A stretch of 64,000 nucleotides of DNA from Bradyrhizobium ontarionense (GTDB taxonomy: Bacteria; Pseudomonadota; Alphaproteobacteria; Rhizobiales; Xanthobacteraceae), in NCBI RefSeq assembly GCF_021088345.1, contig NZ_CP088156.1, positions 2,170,001 to 2,234,000 of the forward strand. The letters are read 5' to 3'. A model generated the notes under the pieces. That model was not told the DNA's origin. It ran no database searches and saw only the letters and a program-made list of their open reading frames with translations. Below are positions 37,401-62,008 of this stretch, one piece after another (positions within the stretch are counted from its first letter, which is position 1; each line of letters begins with the position of its first letter). The position numbers and the translations under genes are program-made.

Positions 37401-37710
37401 GAGGTCGGAGCTGGGCCTGCGCAGCGACAAATCCTACGCGCTGAGCGACGCCATTCTCACACTGCGCAGCCGCTTCGCGTGGGCCTATGACTTCAATCCC
37501 AGCCGTGCGGTCGGGGCCACGTTCCAGACCCTGCCGGGCGCATCCTTCGTGGTCAACGGCGCGCGGCAGGCCCAGAACTCGGCGCTGACGACGGTCTCCG
37601 CCGAAATGAAGTGGCGGAACGGCTGGTCGGCAGCCGCGAGCTTCGAGGGTGAATTCTCCGAAGTCACACGCAGCTACGCCGGCAAGGGCATCGTACGTTA
37701 CGCGTGGTGA
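34459..37710 (+). CDS. autotransporter with Gly-rich passenger
   Basis: 1083 residues from the ATG at 34459, chosen because AGGGG lies six bases upstream; earlier in-frame TTG (34435) and ATG (34453) codons exist. A long signal peptide ends near ATQAMAID. Residues about 150-330 are extremely Gly/Ala/Asn-rich (GSGGGGGGGLGAGGG). Autotransporter-associated repeats follow (KTGTGTLTLSATNTFTG; KAGGGILLLSGTNTYTG). The barrel occupies the last 270 residues and ends RYAW. The barrel and linker (ALTNYFNTNGSIPIVFGSL) closely resemble those of the protein at 11544-14837, while the passengers differ. A surface-exposed or secreted structural protein is expected. Confidence 0.88.
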   Translation: MACFARTMSAALFLATPSSRRRLAWPIVCAGSLIATQAMAIDVANQTDWNTAVAAVAAAGANATVSINITSGFTLSSSLAQLQASNSNVTVNITGNNQAINGASSFQGIVVNGANAPTVNISSLSVTNTAALGGNGQNGQNGYYSGGLSYGSGGGGGGGLGAGGGLLVGSGANVTLALVTFTGNTATGGTGGTGGSAQNTAADPVNGGNGGAGGAANNGGASGGGGTGGTGGHAGGQGTTGTAGAAIGDGGGGGGGSGTTSSTSYTANNSGGSGNANGGNGGAGGDGVTNNNGSQGPGSDGGFGGSGGSANGGAIYVATGGTLTILDTPISGAAVTGGAGGSSGVGAGPSAFNGTAGGTGTAQGAGIFLSGVMANIGVSSGNVTYANTIAGTGLTTGGVNTALNKTGTGTLTLSATNTFTGNVNITAGTVSIAGTANLGNVANDVIISNGGTLAVTGTTTLANGRAFQLAGLSTIDVASATTTTLQGVVANGASAGTLVKAGGGILLLSGTNTYTGATNVDGGTLRAGSAGAFGASTVFSVLSGATLDLNGFNQTFGALSGAGTVTGANSTISGTLTPGDGTPASSMAIVGNLAFQSGAQYIVQVNPTTSSSTNVTGTATLGGAAVTANFANGSYVSKKYTILTATGGVSGTFSGLTNTNLPAGFSTSLSYDGNDAFLNLAMNLAPLPTGFNTNQRGVVNALTNYFNTNGSIPIVFGSLTPAGLTQVSGETGTGSQQTTFNAMTQFMGVMTDPFIAGRGELGAGPSGAIGYAEETLAYARKRNPSDALAAIYNKAPPAPVFVPGWSVWAAGFGGSQTTDGNTALGSNNTTSNVYGTAVGADYRFSPSTIAGFSLAGGGTTFNVANGGSGRSDLFQAGAFVRHNVGAAYISAALAYGWQNVTTNRTVTVAGVDQLRANFDANTYSGRIEGGYRFVSPWMGFGITPYAAAQFTTFNLPAYAENAVSGANTFALRYGSQSVTDTRSELGLRSDKSYALSDAILTLRSRFAWAYDFNPSRAVGATFQTLPGASFVVNGARQAQNSALTTVSAEMKWRNGWSAAASFEGEFSEVTRSYAGKGIVRYAW

Positions 37711-37755
37711 TGCGCTCGCGCCATCAGCGCGATCCCGCCGGGATACGCCGGCGCA

Positions 37756-52156: not shown

Positions 52157-52474
52157 ATGGCTTTCCGTCCGCTTCACGACCGCGTCGTGGTCAAGCGCAT
52201 CGACGCCGAAGAGAAGACCGCTGGCGGCATCATCATTCCCGATTCGGCCAAGGAAAAGCCCTCGCAGGGCGAAGTCGTCGGCGTGGGCCCCGGCGCCCGC
52301 GACGAGAGCGGCAAGCTGGTTCCGCTCGACGTCCAGGTCGGCGATCGCGTGCTGTTCGGCAAGTGGTCCGGCACCGAGGTCAAGATCGACGGCCAGGAGC
52401 TCCTCATCATGAAGGAGAGCGACATCATGGGCGTGATCACCGAGACCGCGTCGAAGAAGAAGGCGGCCGCCTAA
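52157..52474 (+). CDS. groES: co-chaperonin GroES
   Basis: 105 residues with [20 protein letters not shown] at the start, the mobile loop [15 protein letters not shown] and the [11 protein letters not shown] end. It forms the heptameric lid of the GroEL folding chamber in the cytosol. The AGGAGG ribosome site is five bases from the ATG. It is co-transcribed with groEL, 90 bp downstream, under a promoter overlapped by a CIRCE element. Confidence 0.98.
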
Positions 52475-52501
52475 GCCGCAATCCGCTCACGCTCACCCTG
52501 A

Positions 52502-54205
<1,704 letters not shown>

Positions 54206-54309: not shown

Positions 54310-54591
54310 ATGATCCGCAGCTTCGCTGACAGGGCCACCGAGCGGCTGTTCCGCGACCATGTCTGTCCCGCAAAGTGGCGGAACTTCGAAGCCATCGCTT
54401 TGCGGAAGCTCGACATGGTAGATGCTGCCGTCCGTCTGGACGATCTGCGGTCCCCGCCGGGTAATCGACTGGAGGCGCTAAAAGGCGATCGCCGGGGTCA
54501 ACATTCCATCAGGATCAACCAGCAATGGCGGATCTGCTTTGAATGGACGCCAGAGGGTCCGGCACTGGTGGAGATCATAGATTATCACTGA
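54310..54591 (+). CDS. higB: HigB-type toxin (RelE/ParE superfamily)
   Basis: 93 residues. [49 protein letters not shown] and VEIIDYH match HigB toxins, which cleave mRNA at the ribosome. The conserved RINxQWRICF strand holds the likely catalytic Arg. It precedes its antitoxin gene by 8 bp, the toxin-first order normal for higBA. The pair stands between groESL and signal peptidase. Confidence 0.9.
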
Positions 54592-54599
54592 CGGAGACG

Positions 54600-54887
54600 A
54601 TGATGCCCCGCCTGCGCACCCATCCCGGCGAAGTGCTCCGCGAGGAATTCCTCCTTCCTCTCGGGCTGTCCGCGCGTTCGCTGGCGAAAATGCTGGACGT
54701 TCCGCCCAATCGCCTCACCGAGATCATGCGCGGCACTCGCGATGTCACGGCCGACACCGCGCTCCGGCTCGGCCGCTACTTCGGCACCGACCCGCGCTTC
54801 TGGATGAACTTGCAGACCGCCTACGACCTCTCGAAGGCGGAGCAGACCCAGAACTACAAGAAGATCGTGCCGCGCGACGCCGCTTGA
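54600..54887 (+). CDS. higA: HigA-type antitoxin (XRE family)
   Basis: 95 residues (an ATG at 54603 is also possible). THPGEVLREEFLLPLGLSAR and a helix-turn-helix with PPNRLTEIMRGTRDVTADTA are typical of HigA/VapI antitoxins; the end FWMNLQTAYDLSKAE is also conserved. It neutralises HigB and represses the operon by binding its promoter. A GGAGACG ribosome site is present. Confidence 0.92.
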   Translation: MMPRLRTHPGEVLREEFLLPLGLSARSLAKMLDVPPNRLTEIMRGTRDVTADTALRLGRYFGTDPRFWMNLQTAYDLSKAEQTQNYKKIVPRDAA

Positions 54888-54943: not shown

Positions 54944-55723
54944 CTACTTCACCATCGTCCCGATCCGCTCAGAACGAAGCTTCCCGGGCTGGCCTCTCCC
55001 GCCGTTCGCGCTCGAAAAGAAGATCAACCCCGCGCGACCGATCACGTCCTCCACCGGAATGAAGCCCATCTGCGACATCACCCGACTGTCAGTGGAATTG
55101 TCCCGGTTGTCGCCCAGCATGAACAGATGGCCCGGCGGGACGACCTGGACATTGGTGTCGTCGAAGAAGCCGTTGTCGACGCAATCCAGCGTCTCGTAGC
55201 TCGCCCCCTCCGGCAAGGTCTCGCGCCAGCGCTTGACGCGCTCGGGGTTGCCCCCGCCACACGCGTCGGCTCCGATCACATCGGTCAGCCGCTCGCGCGC
55301 CACCGCGCGATCGTTGATGTAGAGCACGCCCTGCTTCATCTGGATGCGATCGCCGCCGAGACCGACCACGCGCTTGATGTAGTCGGTCTTGCCGTCCTTC
55401 AGCCTGAACACCACGACATCGCCGCGCACGGGATCGCGGCCCCAGATGCGCCCCGATGCTGGCGGCGTGAACGGCCAGGAGGAGAACGGCCAAGTGTAGC
55501 GGCCCCAGCCATAGGTGTATTTCGAGGCGAAGACATAGTCGCCGACCAGCAAGGTCGGCATCATCGACCGCGCCGGAATGCTGAACGGCTGATAGAGAAA
55601 GGTCCGGATCAGCACCGGCGAGGCCAGCAGCAGGCACAGCAACGCGAAACCTGCGATGAAGACGGCCGCGATCGCCCACCACGGCTCGCGCGGCCTAACG
55701 GCTCCGGCGTCCAAGCTCGTCAT
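54944..55723 (-). CDS. lepB: signal peptidase I
   Basis: 259 residues from the ATG at 55723. One membrane helix (WWAIAAVFIAGFALLCLLLA) is followed by the catalytic box IPARSMMPTLLVGDY with the nucleophile Ser, then RGDVVVFR and YIKRVVGLGGDR with the catalytic Lys, and LGDNRDNSTDSR near the C-terminus. It cleaves Sec signal peptides on the periplasmic face. It may be a second copy, since such genomes usually have lepB next to rnc; that is an inference. Confidence 0.93.
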   Translation of the reverse strand: MTSLDAGAVRPREPWWAIAAVFIAGFALLCLLLASPVLIRTFLYQPFSIPARSMMPTLLVGDYVFASKYTYGWGRYTWPFSSWPFTPPASGRIWGRDPVRGDVVVFRLKDGKTDYIKRVVGLGGDRIQMKQGVLYINDRAVARERLTDVIGADACGGGNPERVKRWRETLPEGASYETLDCVDNGFFDDTNVQVVPPGHLFMLGDNRDNSTDSRVMSQMGFIPVEDVIGRAGLIFFSSANGGRGQPGKLRSERIGTMVK

Positions 55724-55837
55724 CACATTTCCCCACTCCCCCAGTGCCGGAAAGATGGACCAACGCCGCTTCACGCGCAATTCGCGAACAGGGCGCGCAC
55801 GCATGCGGTTGCATTCATCCCCACGGGTCCTCTCGCA

Positions 55838-55867
55838 GAGACAGGCCGCCCATGGGCGGCCTGTCTC
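55838..55867 (-). terminator. perfect 30-bp palindrome after rtcB
   Basis: GAGACAGGCCGCCCA and its exact complement, 29 bp beyond the rtcB stop. No T-run follows, so it may be a transcript-end hairpin rather than a strong intrinsic terminator. Confidence 0.5.
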
Positions 55868-55896
55868 CGATCTCGGCCGTGACTGCGATGCGCCCC

Positions 55897-57240
55897 TCAC
55901 CGTCCCTTGCGCCATGGCGCGTCGGCTTCCCAGTCGCCGGCCATGATCGAGCCGTAGGGGATCACCTCGTCGATGACATCGCCGAGCCCGAAGCGTGCGA
56001 TCTGCGACCGCACCGAGGCCGCGTTCTTATAGGCCTGCGGCAACTCCGACAAATCGGCCTTGCCGCAATAGAAGCGCGCATCGATGCCGACAGGCAGCTC
56101 CGGCCTGTTCTCTCGCAGGAACGCCTTGCGGCCGAGATTGCGGCCGGCGCCGTGGGGCGCGAAGCCGAGCGCATCCTTGTTATCGCGATGCCCGAGGATC
56201 AGCACCGGCTCGGCCATGTTGAGCGGGACGATGGTACGCCCGTCGTCATCCGCCGAGAAGCCGGACCAGTTCGGCGTCGCGCCCTTGCCGTGGTAGTACA
56301 GGCCATCCGATTTCCGGAAAACGAAATTGTGCTCGTTCCAGAACCGGTCGACGACCTTGTTGCCGAGCCTCGCCGCCGCGAGATCGTGGATCGCGTGATG
56401 GTTGGACTTGGTCCAGAGCCGCGCCGCCTGCAGCGCCTCCCAATACGCCCGGCCGTCGTCGCTCGACGCCTTGATCCAGGCGCTGTGGTCCGGCACCTTC
56501 GGCGCGTGGATCGCGGTGTGCCGCTTCGCCACCGCCATGCCGCGCTTGTAGATCTGCGCGCCGAGGCCGCGGGAGCCGTGATGCGTCACCAGCGCCACCT
56601 GCCCCGTCGACCTGAGATGGCCGACATAGGCGAAGTGGTTGCCGTCGCCTTGGGTCGCGAAGTGGCCAATCGCGAAGCGCTCTAGCCCCTTCAGGAACGG
56701 GTTGGCGTCGAACGCGGCCATCACCTCGTCCGGCGGCTGATGCAGCCGGTCGCGGCCGCCGGGCCCGAAATGGGTGACGTCGTGCACGGCGTCGAGCACC
56801 CGCTTCGGATCATCCTTGCGGCCAAACACCGTGACGGCGACTGAGCAGCAGATGTCGGAGGAGTGGAAACCCGGATGGATCGCGTCCTCGCAGGCGACGA
56901 CGCCGCCCACGGGAATGGTCCCGAGCGCCGTCCCCGACGGGCAGGCGTCCGGCATCACCGCGCCGGCCACGATGGTCGGCACCCGCATCAACGCATCCAT
57001 GTGCTGAGTAACCGCCGCGACATTGGCGCGCTCCAGCTCGCTCTCCGCCTCGATCAGCATCGCGAACGGCACGCCGTTGGTGCGCATCAGGGTTTCGACC
57101 GGCTGCAGCGTCTGCAGCGCCGCGAAGATCGCATCGTCATCGGCGCCGCCGGCGCGCATCATGTTGGCGGTGTCCAGCGCCTGCTTGAACCAGCGCCCCG
57201 GCTTGAAGCCCCAGGTAATCAGAGTGTCTCCGTCGATCAT
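55897..57240 (-). CDS. rtcB: RtcB-family RNA ligase
   Basis: 447 residues from the ATG at 57240 (a GTG at 57252 is possible). Metal-binding and catalytic blocks are in order: GGVVACEDAIHPGFHSSDIC (Asp and Cys ligands), GDGNHFAYVGH, THHGSRGLG, WNEHNFVF, and HGAGRNLGRKAF, whose His is the residue that becomes guanylylated. RtcB joins 2',3'-cyclic phosphate or 3'-phosphate RNA ends to 5'-OH ends using GTP and Mn, repairing or splicing tRNA. The usual partner RtcA and regulator RtcR are not in the window. It lies downstream of a dioxygenase gene on the same strand, with a repeat between. Confidence 0.93.
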   Translation of the reverse strand: MIDGDTLITWGFKPGRWFKQALDTANMMRAGGADDDAIFAALQTLQPVETLMRTNGVPFAMLIEAESELERANVAAVTQHMDALMRVPTIVAGAVMPDACPSGTALGTIPVGGVVACEDAIHPGFHSSDICCSVAVTVFGRKDDPKRVLDAVHDVTHFGPGGRDRLHQPPDEVMAAFDANPFLKGLERFAIGHFATQGDGNHFAYVGHLRSTGQVALVTHHGSRGLGAQIYKRGMAVAKRHTAIHAPKVPDHSAWIKASSDDGRAYWEALQAARLWTKSNHHAIHDLAAARLGNKVVDRFWNEHNFVFRKSDGLYYHGKGATPNWSGFSADDDGRTIVPLNMAEPVLILGHRDNKDALGFAPHGAGRNLGRKAFLRENRPELPVGIDARFYCGKADLSELPQAYKNAASVRSQIARFGLGDVIDEVIPYGSIMAGDWEADAPWRKGR

Positions 57241-57338
57241 GGCTCGTCTCACATTCGGTCAGAACAATATGTTGCGTCCGGCAGCGATTGCGTTCATCCG
57301 CAGAGCTGCCGGTGCTGATGCGCTCGACCCGCGCTCGC

Positions 57339-57422
57339 GTAGCCCGGATGAGCGAAGCGACATCCGGGGTCTCACGAGCTGTGTCAGCGAACCCGCATGT
57401 CGCTTCGCTCATCCGAGCTACG
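57339..57422. repeat. palindromic repeat, GTAGCCCGGATGAG family
   Basis: GTAGCCCGGATGAGCGAAGC ... facing GTCGCTTCGCTCATCCGAGC TACG. Its right end overlaps the stop codon of the dioxygenase gene, so the element forms the 3' end of that gene. Confidence 0.85.
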
Positions 57423-57996
57423 TAGTGCGCCGATACATCACGTCGGTGCGCAGCACGTATTTGCGGCCCTTCGTGACGGGATCACCCCGATGCATGATCG
57501 GATGGTGGAATAGCAGCGCCATGCCCTTCTCCGGCGTGATGCGCAACGGACCGTCCGGCATCAGACCGGTGTCGTCGCAGAACGAGGTCGAACCGCCTTC
57601 AAAATCGTCGTTCAGATAGATCATGAAGGTGAGCTGGCTGCGCTCGCCATTGTCGCGTTCGAAATGGCCGTCACGATGCCATTCGAACTTCTGTCCGACA
57701 TCATAGCGATACAGCCGCAGCCGCTCGGTCAGCCCGATGGGCGACCATCTGTGCTGAAACGATGGCGCGAGATGGCCGATCAGCCGCTGATACAGGGACT
57801 GCGCGCGGTCGGCATCGTCGACGAGGACACGGTCGTTGTTGCGATAGTCCTTCACACCACGAGGCGCGAACAGGGTTGCATCCTCGAATCCCATCAATTC
57901 GCCCAAGCGAATGTATTCCTCGCACTCCGCTGCGGAGAGGAAGCTCGCGATCGTCTCGATGTTGTCGGCTCGCCAGGTCAATTCCGTCATCGTCAC
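57418..57996 (-). CDS. 2-oxoglutarate/Fe(II) oxygenase (prolyl 4-hydroxylase-like)
   Basis: 192 residues. The iron triad is visible: His and Asp in FEWHRDGHF, and His in HHPIMHRGDPV; the 2OG-binding basic residue is in KYVLRTDVMY. The LTFMIYLNDDFEGGSTSF stretch is typical of the P4Hc group. It hydroxylates a protein or small molecule using O2, iron and 2-oxoglutarate. No signal peptide is seen. Its place upstream of rtcB on the same strand is suggestive, but a repeat of 84 bp lies between and co-transcription is not certain. TAG, the stop, is inside the repeat. Confidence 0.88.
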   Translation of the reverse strand: MTMTELTWRADNIETIASFLSAAECEEYIRLGELMGFEDATLFAPRGVKDYRNNDRVLVDDADRAQSLYQRLIGHLAPSFQHRWSPIGLTERLRLYRYDVGQKFEWHRDGHFERDNGERSQLTFMIYLNDDFEGGSTSFCDDTGLMPDGPLRITPEKGMALLFHHPIMHRGDPVTKGRKYVLRTDVMYRRTT

Positions 57997-58397
57997 GCCC
58001 TCCAGGTGACGCGCGACACCGGTCGCGCGCTGACACGAGAGCAGAGAGATGCTGTGGGTGCGCGGAAGCCCTGATCAAGCGGGCCTTTGCGGTTTCTCTC
58101 TGCCCAGGCAGAGGAAACCCGCTGCCTTGTTAGATGATGCGCCCGAGCTGGTCGGGCCGCGCGTCGCCTGCGGAGACCACGGGCCCACGCGCGCACAGAT
58201 CACGTTGCCGGCAAAGCGGCAGCGCGTTGTGCTTGATATGGCGTAGACACAAATTCAGCATGGGTCTCTCGCTGGCGGATATCCGCCGGGTGAGTTGGTG
58301 CGTGCTCTTACAGGAATTTGTGGGTTTGTAAAGTGAGCGGTGTAGCTAATATGAAATGGTAGCGATCTGGCACCGACGGAGCGCGTCACGAAGTGTC
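57997..58397. other. intergenic region with a strong hairpin
   Basis: 401 bp without a supported gene. 58089-58122 folds as GCGGTTTCTCTCTGCC against GGCAGAGGAAACCCGC, a long stem with one bulge. The stretch 58290-58370 is AT-richer and may carry the promoter of the dioxygenase gene. Confidence 0.45.
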
Positions 58398-58520
58398 GTG
58401 GCTATGGATTCCGGGCTCAGCCCTACGGGCTGCCCCGGAATGACGAGTGGAGAGAGTGCGTGATATATCCACTCGTCATTCCGGGGCGCGCGCAGCGTGA
58501 GCCCGGAATCCATAACCACG
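58398..58520. repeat. large composite palindrome, two TCATTCCGGGGC elements in inverted orientation
   Basis: CGTGGCTATGGATTCCGGGC ... GCCCCGGAATGACGAGTGG (58398-58450) and CCACTCGTCATTCCGGGGC ... GAGCCCGGAATCCATAACCACG (58470-58520) are near mirror images, so the whole 123 bp could form one long hairpin. Confidence 0.85.
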
Positions 58521-58542
58521 ACAAGCGGTTCAAGGCACGCTT

Positions 58543-58832
58543 TCAACCACAAATCCCCGAATACAGATCATCCCAATCCGGGTTCTGCTCCTCGATCAGC
58601 CTGATCTTCCAATCGCGGCGCCATTTCTTCAGCTCCTTCTCGCGCGAGATGGCGGTGACGGCGTCATCGTAGATCTCGAACCAGACGAGCTTGCCCACGT
58701 CATATCGGCTGGTGAAGCCAGGCACTGCCTTCGTTCGATGTTCGTAGACCCGCCGCACGAGATCGTTCGTCACTCCGAGATAGAGAGCGTGCCGTGCTTT
58801 TTTCTCGCAAGCAGGTAGACATAATACGCCAT
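58543..58832 (-). pseudogene. GIY-YIG nuclease family gene, frameshifted
   Basis: From the ATG at 58832 the frame begins MAYYVYLLARKKHGTL, the GIY-YIG start, then stops after four codons. The rest continues in another frame: TNDLVRRVYEHR, GFTSRYDVGKLVWFE, AISREKELKKWRRDWK (catalytic Glu region). The shift lies in a CTCTCT run (58782-58787 on the plus strand), where two extra bases are present. Removing two bases restores LYLGVTNDL. The complete protein would have about 95 residues, like the short UvrC-N-type proteins common in proteobacteria. It is flanked on both sides by large palindromes. Confidence 0.85.
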
Positions 58833-58840
58833 TGAACAGC

Positions 58841-58996
58841 CGTGGTTATGGATTCCGGGCTCAGCCCTTCGGGCTGCCCCGGAATGACGATGAGGATAGA
58901 TCGCGATCTCACCTCGAACAATATCCGACGATGAGCCATAACCCCCTCCTCCGTCATTCCGGGGCATCGCGCAGCGATGAGCCCGGAATCCATGGC
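58841..58996. repeat. large composite palindrome, second copy
   Basis: CGTGGTTATGGATTCCGGGC ... GCCCCGGAATGACGA at the left and CGTCATTCCGGGGCATCGCG ... GAGCCCGGAATCCATGGC at the right, about 60 bp apart. Same architecture as 58398-58520, on the other side of the GIY-YIG remnant. Confidence 0.8.
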
Positions 58997-59057
58997 CGCG
59001 ACAGATTCTGAAAGAGCCGACGGGACTTTGATTCCGACTCCAACGTACCAGAAGAAC

Positions 59058-59083
59058 GAAAGGCCGCCCTTGGGCGACCTTTC
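59058..59083 (-). terminator. slipin gene terminator
   Basis: On the minus strand GAAAGGTCGCCC-AA-GGGCGGCCTTTC (one mismatch) is followed by GTTCTT, 37 bp after the slipin stop. It suggests that the slipin transcript ends before the GIY-YIG region. Confidence 0.65.
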
Positions 59084-59119
59084 TCAATGGTTTAGCGACC
59101 AAGCGATCATGCATCCCCG

Positions 59120-60271
59120 TCACACCGTCTCCGCCGGCTTCATCCGCATCAGCCCCGTCAGCAGCGCATCGAGGCCTGCGCCCTCGCCGGCATGCAGGTC
59201 GATGCGGCCGACCTTCTCGACAAGGCGCTCCAGCGACTCCAGCTCCTTGAGCCGCAACAGCAGCGGGTTGTCCTCCATCAGCTTGGCGGTGTTGAGGAGC
59301 GAGCGCGTCGCCGCGGTCTCCTCCTGCCGGCGGATCAGGTTGGCCTTCGCCGTCCGCTCCGCCTCCACCACCTTGTTGACGAGGTCGCGGATCTCGCCGG
59401 GCAGGATCACGTCCTTCACGCCGAGCTCCGTCACCTCGATGCCCGCCCCATCGAGACGCGCACGCACGTAGTCGCGCAGCTCGGCATCGAGCGCGGCCTT
59501 GGCCGCCAGCACCTCGTCGAGCGTGCGTGAGGCCACCGCCTCGCGGATCGCGAACTGCACCAGGCGATACAGCCACGCATCGACGTCCGGCGTGGTCGCC
59601 ACCACCCGCTCGGGATCGACGATCCGCCGGAACGCCGTCAAGGTCACCCGCAGCGCGATGCGATCCTTGGTCAGCATCTCCTGCGCGGTGATCTCGAGCG
59701 CCGACGGCCGCAGGTCGAGCCGCTTGACCTCGATCTTGCGGCCGACCACCCAGAAGGCATGCCGGCCGGGCGCAAGCCGCTCGGTCAGCCGGCCCTCGAC
59801 GTGGAGCAGGCCCGCCTCGTGGTTCTCGACCACCACCTCGGTCACGATGCTCGGCCGGTTGCGCTCGATCATCGCCAGATGCCGCGCGCTCACGCGCACG
59901 TCATCAGCGACATCGATGCGCTCGACCTCCACTGACGTTGCGACCTTCCAGAACACCCGCGTCTGCCAGGGCGTCAGCAGATGCGTCGGCCGACCGTCGA
60001 GGCTGACGATCGCGATCTCGTTCGCGCCGGTCTCGACCGCTGCGAACAGCTCGGCAGCGAGATCAGGCCGTGCGGCCTTCAGCACCGCGTAGCGCTCGGC
60101 GGTGTATTCGGTCCGGACCACGTCGTACACCTGCACCTTCAGCCGGTGCAGCGGATCGAGCAGCATATGACGGCCGGGGCCGAGCACACGCGCGAGCTGG
60201 CCGTCACGCCAGACCAGCGCCCGCTCACCATCCGCAACCGTCACGGCCTTGGTCACAATCTGCCAGCTCAT
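59120..60271 (-). CDS. slipin (SPFH/band 7) family protein
   Basis: 383 residues. A central SPFH domain (about 180-290) has RIALRVTLTAFRRIVDPERV, LVQFAIREAVASRTLDEVLA and GAGIEVTELGVKDVILPGEI, followed by a coiled-coil helix (LVNKVVEAERTAKANLIRR) and NPLLLRLKELESLERLVEK. Unlike stomatin it has no N-terminal membrane hairpin; it starts with a polar strand segment (VADGERALVWRDG) and has an extra duplicated beta region. Slipins scaffold membrane microdomains and oligomerise. From what I recall of RNA-repair gene neighbourhoods, slipins of this kind occur near RtcB; here rtcB is 2 kb downstream. Confidence 0.88.
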   Translation of the reverse strand: MSWQIVTKAVTVADGERALVWRDGQLARVLGPGRHMLLDPLHRLKVQVYDVVRTEYTAERYAVLKAARPDLAAELFAAVETGANEIAIVSLDGRPTHLLTPWQTRVFWKVATSVEVERIDVADDVRVSARHLAMIERNRPSIVTEVVVENHEAGLLHVEGRLTERLAPGRHAFWVVGRKIEVKRLDLRPSALEITAQEMLTKDRIALRVTLTAFRRIVDPERVVATTPDVDAWLYRLVQFAIREAVASRTLDEVLAAKAALDAELRDYVRARLDGAGIEVTELGVKDVILPGEIRDLVNKVVEAERTAKANLIRRQEETAATRSLLNTAKLMEDNPLLLRLKELESLERLVEKVGRIDLHAGEGAGLDALLTGLMRMKPAETV

Positions 60272-60637
60272 GGCACTCTCCTGTTCGCACGCTCCACAAG
60301 TCGAGCCGTGCGTCTGTTACGTCCGGCCGTGGCCGGGACGTGGTTTCATTGCAAAGGACGTGAGGACCGGACGGCACTTCCTGCGTGAACCGAGCGGGCC
60401 GAGGCTTGAGCCTCGCGCGATGACGGGCGCACGCGCGCGGTCGCGCGAGCCGTAAGCCCGTGCGTCCATGCGCAGCCTTCCCGACAGCACGCGACGCGGT
60501 ATCCACCGCGGCACAGAGCCGGTTCTGCAGTGTCGTGAAGTACGAACGTAATGCCTTGCGGCAGAACGGCCGGACCGCGACTGAAGCGCGCGTCCGGTCC
60601 TCGTCAGAGGTGATTAGCTGTTCAGGCTAAACCGAAG
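60272..60637 (-). other. 366-bp leader between tRNA-like pair and slipin
   Basis: No gene is supported. If the transcript starts near 60863 this is part of the slipin 5' leader. GTCCGG/CCGGAC arms around 60325-60375 could form a stem. The slipin start itself has a good ribosome site (ACAGGAGAG). Confidence 0.4.
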
Positions 60638-60710
60638 CGCTGGAGCGGGAATCGAACCCGCGACCCGATGATTCATGGTCACCTGCTCTACCCAACTGAG
60701 CTATCCTTTG
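60638..60710 (-). ncRNA. degenerate tRNA-like sequence 2
   Basis: 73 nt. D arm (TAGCTCAGTTGGGTAGAGC), an anticodon arm GGTGA-CCATGAA-TCATC and a perfect T arm GCGGG-TTCGATT-CCCGC are all present. The acceptor stem is broken: CAAAGGA faces TCCAGCG with three mismatches, and there is no CCA at the right place. Position 33 is C rather than the universal U, and the apparent anticodon is ATG. Normal aminoacylation is unlikely. It abuts the next tRNA-like sequence with no spacer. Confidence 0.7.
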
Positions 60711-60777
60711 TGTGTCGATCGGAATCGAACCGATGCCTTCGAGTATCACCCCGATGCTCTCCATGAGCTACGACGCG
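60711..60777 (-). ncRNA. degenerate tRNA-like sequence 1
   Basis: 67 nt. Elements: TAGCTC-ATGGA-GAGC (D arm with a 5-nt loop), TCGGG-GTGATA-CTCGA (6-nt anticodon loop), and a perfect T arm ATCGG-TTCGATT-CCGAT. The acceptor CGCGTCG/CGACACA has two mismatches and no CCA. The shortened loops and missing CCA mark it as tRNA-like rather than a standard tRNA. Confidence 0.65.
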
Positions 60778-60869
60778 CGTCTTCGCTATGACGAAACACG
60801 GGACCGGACACCGGCCGCGCCAGTCGGGATCTCAACGAGCCCGAACCAAAGTCATCGCGAAGGATCGCG

Positions 60870-60898
60870 CTGATACACACATTAGATTTCTTGCGCAA
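60870..60898 (-). promoter_or_regulatory. candidate promoter for tRNA-like pair and slipin
   Basis: Minus strand TTGCGC (60893-60898) and TATCAG (60870-60875) with 17-bp spacing, in a locally AT-rich stretch. Transcription would start near 60863, about 85 bp before the first tRNA-like sequence. Confidence 0.4.
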
Positions 60899-60983
60899 GA
60901 TGTTTGTCGACGTCTTTTGTAGATAGACATGACTCTGTTACTAATCAGCTACATGCCTGACTTCCTGATCAGACTATCAGCAC

Positions 60984-61095
60984 GTAGCCCGGATGAGCGA
61001 AGCGACATCCGGGTTCACCGGCGCCGCTCGTGAAACCCCGGATATCGCCTCCGCCGCCGCCCGTTGGGCGTCGGCGGAGGCTCATCCGGGCTACG
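60984..61095. repeat. palindromic repeat, GTAGCCCGGATGAG family
   Basis: GTAGCCCGGATGAGCGAAGC at the left and GGAGGCTCATCCGGGCTACG at the right, with a GC-rich hairpin (CGCCTCCGCCG) in the centre. It lies between the HNH gene and the tRNA-like pair. Confidence 0.85.
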
Positions 61096-61112
61096 CAGAG
61101 ACGACCGCTTCG

Positions 61113-61649
61113 TCAACGCTCGAGCTCCACGTCCCAGTAGAGATAGTCCTGCCAAGTCTCATGCAGGAATCGCGGCGGGAACAGGCGCTGCGCGGCCATC
61201 AGCTCGTGCCGTGTCGGCTCGAACGGCGGTCGCCGCGGCGCGAGGCGGCGCCGGTCCTTGTGCGCGTTGCAGGGACTGCACGCCGCCACGATGTTGGTCC
61301 AGGACGTCTCGCCGCCATCCGCCCGCGGCACCACGTGATCGAACGTGAGCTCGCCGTGCAGATACCGGCCGCCGCAGTACTGACACTGGAAGCGATCGCG
61401 CAGGAAGACGTTGAATCGCGTGAACGCGACCCGCGTCGCCGGCCTGACATAGTCGCGCAGCGCGATCACCGATGGCAGCCGCATCGTGACACTCGGGCTG
61501 CGCACGACCTGCTCGTACTCCGCGACGACGACGTGGGACTCGCCGACCACGGCCCTGATCGCGTCCTGCCAGTTGAAGACCGACAGCGGAAAGTAACTCA
61601 GCGGCTGGAAATCGGCATTGAGAACGAGCGCCGGGTGTGTTGCTGACAT
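61113..61649 (-). CDS. HNH endonuclease
   Basis: 178 residues with a strong GAGGAGG ribosome site. The N-terminal VLNADFQPLSYFPLSVFNWQ and DAIRAVVGE are found in many alphaproteobacterial HNH proteins. The nuclease core has CQYCGG, LTFDHVVPRADGGETSWTN (the H of the ββα motif and the Asn) and CSPCNAHKDRR, giving a four-Cys zinc site. It should cut nucleic acid; whether DNA or RNA is not known. A well-formed tRNA-like gene ends 43 bp upstream on the same strand, so the two are probably on one transcript. Confidence 0.9.
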   Translation of the reverse strand: MSATHPALVLNADFQPLSYFPLSVFNWQDAIRAVVGESHVVVAEYEQVVRSPSVTMRLPSVIALRDYVRPATRVAFTRFNVFLRDRFQCQYCGGRYLHGELTFDHVVPRADGGETSWTNIVAACSPCNAHKDRRRLAPRRPPFEPTRHELMAAQRLFPPRFLHETWQDYLYWDVELER

Positions 61650-61692
61650 CGTCGACCTCCTCTCTCTGGGTTGATGATCTGCTCGGTATAGC

Positions 61693-61767
61693 TGGCGCCC
61701 ATGACGGGAATCGAACCCGCCTTACCGGATCGACAATCCGGTCCCTTCGCCAGATGGGGACATGGGC
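61693..61767 (-). tRNA. tRNA-Asp(GUC)-like gene
   Basis: 75 nt. A perfect acceptor GCCCATG/CATGGGC, discriminator G and encoded CCA; anticodon stem CCGGA/TCCGG with loop TTGTCGA, placing GTC exactly at 34-36 and U at 33; T arm GCGGG/CCCGT with loop TTCGATT. The D stem is only CCC/GGG and begins with C10. G73 and GTC fit aspartyl-tRNA synthetase identity, but the body is unlike standard bacterial tRNA-Asp. It may be a noncanonical or decoy tRNA. It lies directly upstream of the HNH gene. Confidence 0.75.
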
Positions 61768-61819
61768 CGTGTGATCACGCCTGGGGCGTCTTGCCGCCCG
61801 CCAACATGATCGTCGTCAA

Positions 61820-62008
61820 TCAATCGAGTGCGACTGAAGCGTGATCCGGTTGAACGCGGTTGATGTAGTCGAGATAGATCTGCCGAGCCTGCGCCTCGGT
61901 AACACCGCGGCACGCCATTGCGATGCGCACGAAGGCAAGCGCCACCGGCGAGCACAGCGCTCGCGCGTGGTCACATGTCTCGGGATCTGGGCTCATGGTG
62001 CGGGTCAT
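61820..62008 (-). CDS. small hypothetical protein upstream of the tRNA-like gene
   Basis: 62 residues from the ATG at 62008, with GGAGGG five bases upstream, a strong ribosome site. The product is helical: DHARALCSPVALAFVRIAMA, then GVTEAQARQIYLDYINRV. No known motif. It ends 52 bp before the 5' end of the tRNA-Asp-like gene on the same strand and could be the first gene of that transcript. The frame is open further upstream but the ribosome site marks this start. Confidence 0.5.
   Translation of the reverse strand: MTRTMSPDPETCDHARALCSPVALAFVRIAMACRGVTEAQARQIYLDYINRVQPDHASVALD

What the first reader, a model, noticed from the sequence alone, without database searches (positions are those of the whole stretch)
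55897..62008. RtcB, dioxygenase, slipin, HNH nuclease and three tRNA-like genes clustered on one strand
Seen: reading the minus strand from 62008, there is a 62-codon ORF, a tRNA-Asp(GUC)-like gene, an HNH nuclease, two abutting tRNA-like sequences, a slipin, a GIY-YIG remnant, a 2OG-Fe oxygenase and RtcB, all co-oriented. Known: RtcB rejoins tRNA halves left by anticodon nucleases, and RNA-repair genes are often found beside tRNA-like RNAs and SPFH proteins. Inference: this may be a tRNA damage sensing and repair, or decoy, locus in which nuclease, ligase, membrane scaffold and tRNA mimics work together. A hairpin at 59058-59083 and repeats between genes mean it is probably two or more transcripts.
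Basis: partly seen in the sequence, partly recalled or inferred. Interest (0 to 1): 0.85.

Follow-up and report, generated by a model that had tools for sequence, protein, structure and literature searches.

The report
tRNA-mimic RNA paired with slipin
Near an RNA-repair ligase gene, this Bradyrhizobium-like bacterium carries a large folded RNA with two tRNA look-alike domains that is inherited together with one particular slipin gene, which points to a new RNA-protein partnership in RNA repair or translation stress.

Summary
The two abutting "tRNA-like genes" are modules of one structured RNA of about 500 nt (60868-60361, minus strand): covarying 5' domain, two tRNA-mimic domains, covarying 3' domain, directly upstream of slipin. 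Rfam 15 sees only tRNA folds in it. The 5' motif precedes slipin in 81 of 81 closest loci; in 117 same-genus genomes RNA and full-length slipin occur in the same 36. Of 21 diverged slipin loci elsewhere in the phylum, 20 show tRNA-like arms upstream; RtcB is nearby in all 14 outside the Alphaproteobacteria and in none of 7 inside, RtcR in 7. One locus reads RtcB-RtcA-tRNAs-HNH-RNA-slipin-RlaP-RtcB-RF1. The window is best read as a diverged, RtcR-less relative of RNA-repair operons; GIY-YIG and 2OG look incidental. Most likely mechanism (inferred): slipin and RNA form a particle whose tRNA mimics dock repair enzymes or damaged tRNAs, or decoy nucleases; a cis-acting leader is the main rival. 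Slipin shows no membrane stretch and has three beta-repeats before its SPFH domain; a vault-like cage is possible but unproven.

The parts
60361..60868 (-). large structured non-coding RNA (5' domain, two tRNA-mimic domains, hairpin, 3' domain) upstream of slipin; ends estimated by eye
   Evidence: conserved structure with compensatory changes in all three parts; co-occurrence with slipin 36 of 36
60772..60868 (-). 5' domain of the RNA (model R1)
   Evidence: 92% of cells paired, 16 of 24 pairs with change on both sides, slid controls 44-49%; motif (written from these sequences) in 81 of 81 loci; one strong match in the own genome, 75.9 bits, next 21.6
60709..60778 (-). tRNA-mimic domain t1, degenerate anticodon loop
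   Evidence: loop statistics
60642..60706 (-). tRNA-mimic domain t2, short acceptor stem
   Evidence: covariation
60614..60630 (-). small hairpin between t2 and the 3' domain
   Evidence: sequence; compensatory changes
60361..60610 (-). 3' domain closed by a long-range helix (GAGGACCGGAC / GTCCGGTCCTC)
   Evidence: 35 of 86 RNAalifold pairs with compensatory change (structure derived from the same alignment)
59120..60271 (-). slipin: SPFH protein with three N-terminal beta-repeats and no detected membrane stretch
   Evidence: PF01145, AlphaFold2 models, internal repeats and hydropathy
55897..57252 (-). divergent RtcB RNA ligase
   Evidence: PF01139; D133, C136, N205, H206, H224, H308, H367 shared with four other RtcBs
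61113..61649 (-). HNH nuclease, same relative position as in L134 and L140
   Evidence: PF01844/PF14279
61693..61767 (-). tRNA-Asp(GUC)-like gene beside HNH; no near copy in the genome
61820..62008 (-). 62-codon ORF, found only in the same 4 of 80 loci that have HNH
   Evidence: 67-76% identity
59058..59083 (-). terminator-like hairpin after slipin
57418..57990 (-). 2OG-Fe(II) oxygenase, probably a neighbour only
   Evidence: PF13640; 6 of 81 loci, window included
58543..58830 (-). broken GIY-YIG gene, probably a passenger
   Evidence: PF01541; in 19 of 81 loci, 11 on one strand and 8 on the other

Best explanation
The locus is a diverged RNA-repair / translation-stress module. Its core is a conserved non-coding RNA of about 500 nt with two tRNA-mimic domains plus a slipin without a membrane anchor. 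Shown here by sequence: the RNA's structure, its strict linkage to this slipin, and the place of this slipin with tRNA-like arms in RtcR-RtcB-RlaP operons of other proteobacteria. Inferred: the RNA acts as a stable RNA bound by oligomeric slipin. Its tRNA-mimic domains, mostly unable to decode a fixed codon, dock tRNA-handling enzymes or damaged tRNAs for RtcB to ligate, or compete with tRNA nucleases. In RtcR-bearing relatives cleaved tRNAs would switch the operon on; this genome has no detectable RtcR and must control it otherwise. HNH and the tRNA-Asp-like gene form an upstream tRNA/HNH unit that also occurs beside this RNA in two unnamed proteobacteria outside the class.
For: Structure. 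T-arms upstream of slipin in 108 of 111 loci, against 19 of 1258 other pieces of the same loci and 13 of 2220 shuffles. Not decoding: t1 loops differ from 7 nt in 82 of 102 cases, 12 are GNRA tetraloops; t2 7-nt loops (73 of 107) show 23 different triplets. Co-inheritance 36/36 against 0/81. Repair context: RtcB in 14 of 21, RtcR in 7 of 21; RtcR, RlaP, RtcA and RF-1 by Pfam in representatives; Burkholderia, Photobacterium and Citrobacter loci. Independent reports, passages only: P. aeruginosa SPFH gene in the rtc locus (PMC13086221); 'tRNA gene' PA4581.1 one of the two genes with the highest increase between an early and a late isolate (PMC8743555); Anabaena tRNA operon, HNH, rtcB and slipin up together (PMC10272220, PMC9938897); Salmonella rtc operon switched on by damaged tRNAs (PMC7790460).
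Against: No expression or binding data for Bradyrhizobium. RtcB is near slipin in only 13 of 36 slipin-positive same-genus genomes and in 0 of 7 other alphaproteobacterial loci of the phylum sample, 0 of 4 of the class sample and 0 of 22 non-Bradyrhizobium loci of the nearest 80. No RtcR in this genome. The promoter scan found no sigma-70 site. The RNA ends only about 90 nt before slipin here, so a cis-acting leader fits too. E. coli and Citrobacter loci keep no perfect 5-bp T-arm. Single domains can score like real tRNAs (L140 6550-6623, 68 bits). RtcB and slipin are separated here by 1.9 kb with unrelated genes and a terminator-like hairpin.
Confidence: 0.6

Rival explanations
1. The RNA is a cis-acting leader: its tRNA-mimic domains are bound or cut by tRNA-handling enzymes, and this controls slipin expression, so that slipin is made when those enzymes are titrated by damaged tRNAs.
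For: Directly upstream and co-oriented wherever it was seen; short spacer to the slipin start in Bradyrhizobium; perfect co-inheritance.
Against: In L078-L080 and the similar L125, L126 a few hundred nt separate the RNA end (by eye) and slipin. The 3' domain is closed on itself by a long-range helix. An RNA annotated separately, PA4581.1, is among the most increased transcripts in one P. aeruginosa comparison.
Confidence: 0.3
2. The tRNA-like domains are only processing signals: RNase P and RNase Z excise them and thereby free the 5' and 3' domains, which are the functional parts, possibly rejoined by RtcB.
For: t1 and t2 abut; t1 often has a 7-bp acceptor and an encoded CCA-like end (read by eye); some loci lack t1 but keep the 5' and 3' domains (L049, L052, L053).
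Against: In t2 the two outer acceptor pairs form in only 8 and 12 sequences, a poor processing substrate; GNRA loops in some t1 arms suggest a tertiary role.
Confidence: 0.15
3. The tRNA-likes are decayed tRNA genes at an integration site, and the cluster is an accidental island.
For: Patchy distribution: slipin in 37 of 117 same-genus genomes, one truncated, and 23 of 398 across the phylum, own genome included.
Against: Compensatory changes in every domain, same position over a wide range of slipin identity, exact co-inheritance.
Confidence: 0.03

Closest known systems
rtcR | rsr-yrlBA-rtcBA RNA-repair operon with Y RNA (Salmonella)
   Same: a tRNA-like non-coding RNA and a partner protein in an RtcB operon with RtcR encoded opposite (PMC7790460, passages)
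   Different: slipin instead of the Ro60 protein Rsr; two tandem tRNA mimics and large flanking domains; best YrlA match 29.7 bits (L010) against a cut-off of 69; no RtcR here
P. aeruginosa rtc locus (RtcR, PA4582/PaFlo8 SPFH protein, RtcB, RtcA)
   Same: SPFH gene inside the rtc locus (PMC13086221, PMC8619066, passages); a 'tRNA gene' numbered PA4581.1, by its number just before PA4582 (PMC8743555, passage)
   Different: in the passages seen the RNA is not described as a conserved structured RNA; its sequence was not seen here, and PA4581 being rtcR is recalled
Anabaena trn/L-array operon with HNH, rtcB and slipin under TrcR
   Same: same set of parts: tRNAs, HNH, RtcB, slipin, up in a trcR mutant or with erythromycin present (PMC10272220, PMC9938897, passages)
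   Different: parts at separate loci, 26 tRNA genes; no tRNA-mimic RNA before slipin mentioned in the passages seen; the Anabaena slipin locus was not examined here
Major vault protein and vault RNA
tRNA array units with HNH (mycobacteria, phages)
   Same: HNH beside tRNA genes (PMC5966550, passages)
   Different: one tRNA-like gene here, next to a repair-operon core

Membership tests
RtcR-type RNA-repair operon | RtcB ligase with catalytic residues | tested here: met
   PF01139; conserved D, C, N-H and H positions (which residues are catalytic is recalled)
RtcR-type RNA-repair operon | RtcR activator, divergent, sigma-54 | tested here: not met
   no PF06956 match in the own genome; RtcR found in 7 of 21 relatives
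RtcR-type RNA-repair operon | RtcA cyclase | not tested
   not searched in the own genome; present in L140
Y RNA / Ro60 particle | tRNA-like domain in the RNA | tested here: met
Y RNA / Ro60 particle | matches the YrlA family at its cut-off | tested here: not met
   window search at gathering scores shows no YrlA; best related score 29.7 against 69
Y RNA / Ro60 particle | Ro60/Rsr (TROVE) partner | not tested
   no TROVE search of the genome; no such domain among the Pfam-scanned neighbours
decoding tRNA | 7-nt anticodon loop with a fixed anticodon and full acceptor | tested here: not met
   t1 and t2 across loci, lowest tRNA scores of the genome; a few single domains elsewhere score like tRNAs, and the Asp-like gene at 61693-61767 may be a tRNA
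vault | vault repeats before the SPFH shoulder | tested here: inconclusive
   whole model aligns to MVP, N-terminal part alone does not clearly, no Pfam match
vault | particle of protein and RNA | not testable with these tools
   needs purification or cryo-EM
slipin / SPFH | SPFH domain | tested here: met
   PF01145 E 1.3e-31; solved stomatins matched
slipin / SPFH | membrane anchor | tested here: not met
   highest 19-residue mean hydropathy 1.78 among 34 members; amphipathic or lipid anchors not tested

The most novel reading that the evidence does not exclude
Slipin and the tandem tRNA-mimic RNA form a closed or half-closed soluble cage, a bacterial counterpart of the vault particle, that is made when tRNAs or ribosomes are damaged and sequesters or presents them for RtcB/RlaP repair; vaults, whose MVP domains are called unique to the vault (PMC13100048, passage), would then have relatives in bacterial RNA-repair operons.
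Probability: 0.12. Interest if true: 0.97.

Novelty: new variant of a known kind. Interest (0 to 1): 0.82.

Why it matters
RtcB-based repair is known, but what the accessory proteins and tRNA-like RNAs in these operons do is open: the Salmonella study names tRNA decay or nuclease inhibition as possibilities for its Y RNAs (PMC7790460, passage). A second, structurally different tRNA-mimic RNA, tied one-to-one to a different partner protein and traceable from Bradyrhizobium to Burkholderia, Photobacterium and, in reduced form, enteric bacteria, makes that question testable. It may also explain 'tRNA genes' such as PA4581.1 that appear in expression studies without a known meaning.
Full report
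Observation. The genome is held as one contig of 8.44 Mb; its nearest named relatives are Bradyrhizobium. Of 51 tRNA-model hits the three weakest are precisely the three in this locus.

The two abutting tRNA-likes belong to one RNA. The nearest slipin genes were fetched from one genome per species: 80 loci, 58 of them Bradyrhizobium, the others among Rhodoplanes, Hyphomicrobium, Bosea, Dongia, Sphingomonas and related or unclassified alphaproteobacteria, 47-90% identity. A 5'-domain motif written from these sequences is found in all 80 and the window, at least one tRNA T-arm in all 80 and the window. The 3' part was read in 28 of the 81: a hairpin and a domain that in the closer relatives is closed by a long-range helix. 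The 5' domain in 35 sequences pairs in 92% of cells, 16 of 24 pairs show changes on both sides, and structures slid by 1-3 columns fall to 44-49%. The tRNA domains in 31 sequences: 94% paired, 15 of 28 pairs with double changes, slid controls 39-48%. The 3' domain in 22 sequences: RNAalifold gives 86 pairs, 1657 of 1883 cells paired, 35 pairs with compensatory changes (derived from the same alignment, so biased). Above its cut-offs Rfam 15 recognises only tRNA folds (window; five loci); a permissive scan of five loci adds a sub-threshold YrlA match.

The tRNA-like domains are mostly mimics, not decoding tRNAs. Of 102 t1 arms only 20 have a 7-nt loop and 12 have GNRA tetraloops; of 107 t2 arms 73 have 7-nt loops but with 23 different triplets (automatic assignment). 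In t2 the outer two acceptor pairs form in few sequences. Some loci show a single arm but keep the rest (for example L049, L052, L053). Against this, single domains can still look like tRNAs: one in L140 scores 68 bits.

RNA and slipin are inherited together. In 117 same-genus genomes full-length slipin occurs in 36, plus one truncated copy. BLAST with 370 nt of the RNA (5' domain, both tRNA-likes and the start of the 3' domain) gives long matches in the same 36 and in no other; two further genomes hold short pieces without slipin (Fisher p 5e-31, relatedness ignored). That search reports matches in 114 of 117 genomes, but all the rest are short hits to the tRNA-like part; in the own genome the second hit is its best-scoring tRNA. 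The pair is an accessory module: slipin is found at full length in 5 of 289 genomes of the class, own included (14 of 289 at the loose threshold), and in 23 of 398 of the phylum, own included.

The module sits in RNA-repair operons elsewhere. The phylum sample gave 21 non-Bradyrhizobium loci, 7 from the same class and 14 from outside it, slipin identity 34-52%. RtcB lies nearby in all 14 from outside the class and in none of the 7 inside; in 13 it follows slipin, in L145 it precedes it. RtcR faces the operon in 7 of 21 and the RlaP-type nucleotidyltransferase was found by BLAST in 5; Pfam confirms RtcR, RlaP, RtcA, RtcB and an RF-1 domain in representatives. In named records: Burkholderia RtcR | tRNA-likes | slipin | RtcB | RlaP; Photobacterium RtcR | two tRNA-likes | slipin | RtcB; Citrobacter RtcR | slipin | nucleotidyltransferase; a Firmicute, read from its ORFs, slipin | RtcB | nucleotidyltransferase. 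E. coli carries slipin-nucleotidyltransferase: 1624 of 5426 complete genomes match, 1617 over at least 80% of the query. Upstream of slipin at least one perfect T-arm is found in 108 of 111 loci (misses: E. coli, Citrobacter and L128, which is cut at its contig end), against 19 of 1258 other pieces of the same loci. In Bradyrhizobium the link to RtcB is looser: 14 of the 80 nearest loci; the RtcB cluster, 19 copies in 14 loci, is on the slipin strand in all 19; 13 of 36 slipin-positive genomes have RtcB within 5 kb. RtcB occurs in 24 of 36 slipin-positive and 27 of 81 slipin-negative genomes (p 0.001).

HNH and tRNAs. HNH occurs in 4 of the 80 loci and the window, but 2 of the 21 phylum loci, L134 and L140, both from outside the class, have HNH with tRNA genes in the same place. 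L140 reads RtcB, RtcA, tRNA-Asn/His/Gly, HNH, RNA, slipin, RlaP, RtcB, RF-1 protein. The window's tRNA-Asp-like gene has no near copy in its genome, and of the five HNH loci of this clade only the window and L002 show it.

What others reported, from passages only. The P. aeruginosa SPFH gene PA14_60630 is embedded in the rtc locus (PMC13086221); the PAO1 operon holds RtcB, RtcA, PA4582 and PA4584 with RtcR opposite (PMC8619066); a 'tRNA gene' PA4581.1 was one of the two genes with the highest increase in a late against an early clinical isolate, meaning unknown (PMC8743555). In Anabaena rtcB, an HNH gene, a slipin operon and the tRNA operon are up without TrcR (PMC10272220); the tRNA array, the HNH gene beside it, rtcB and slipin also changed in another study, whose authors suspect erythromycin as the cause (PMC9938897). 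Damaged tRNAs switch on the Salmonella operon (PMC7790460).

Mechanism. Shown: the RNA, its linkage, its operon context. Inferred from family knowledge: RtcB ligates cleaved tRNA ends, RlaP is predicted to refill lost nucleotides (PMC7824862, PMC6514570, passages), slipin oligomerises. Proposed: the RNA is the RNA part of a slipin particle and its tRNA mimics bind tRNA-handling enzymes, damaged tRNAs or nucleases. A cis-acting leader remains possible. This genome lacks RtcR, and no sigma-70 consensus site was found, so control is unknown here.

Noticed in passing
window 54310-54887, plus strand: HigB-like toxin (PF05015) with an overlapping HTH antitoxin-like gene, next to groEL.
   Followed up: no
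window 52157-54205 and L001-L080: groEL lies downstream of slipin on the opposite strand in 48 of 81 loci and groES in 35, including 6 and 5 non-Bradyrhizobium loci, so the module favours one chromosomal place.
   Followed up: partly
window 54944-55915, minus strand: An S26 signal peptidase homologue lies shortly after slipin in many Bradyrhizobium loci.
   Followed up: no
window 58400-58990: The broken GIY-YIG gene is flanked by inverted repeats ending in CCCCGGAATGACG, as in mobile repeat units (read).
   Followed up: no
L140 (unnamed proteobacterium outside the class): A combined operon RtcB-RtcA-tRNAs-HNH-RNA-slipin-RlaP-RtcB-RF1.
   Followed up: partly
L098, L099 and E. coli chromosomes: A slipin-nucleotidyltransferase operon in 1624 of 5426 E. 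coli genomes, preceded, by eye, by a sigma-54-like promoter and a reduced version of the RNA with one imperfect T-arm.
   Followed up: partly
L142 4593-4807: Three tandem tRNA-like domains instead of two before slipin.
   Followed up: no
L150 (G486) and L151 (G467): Two same-genus genomes without slipin keep short pieces of the RNA; in G486 an RtcB gene lies about 3.5 kb away, which looks like a lost module.
   Followed up: partly
window 37675-37754, minus strand: ARAGORN reports a tRNA-Ile that Rfam does not confirm.
   Followed up: no
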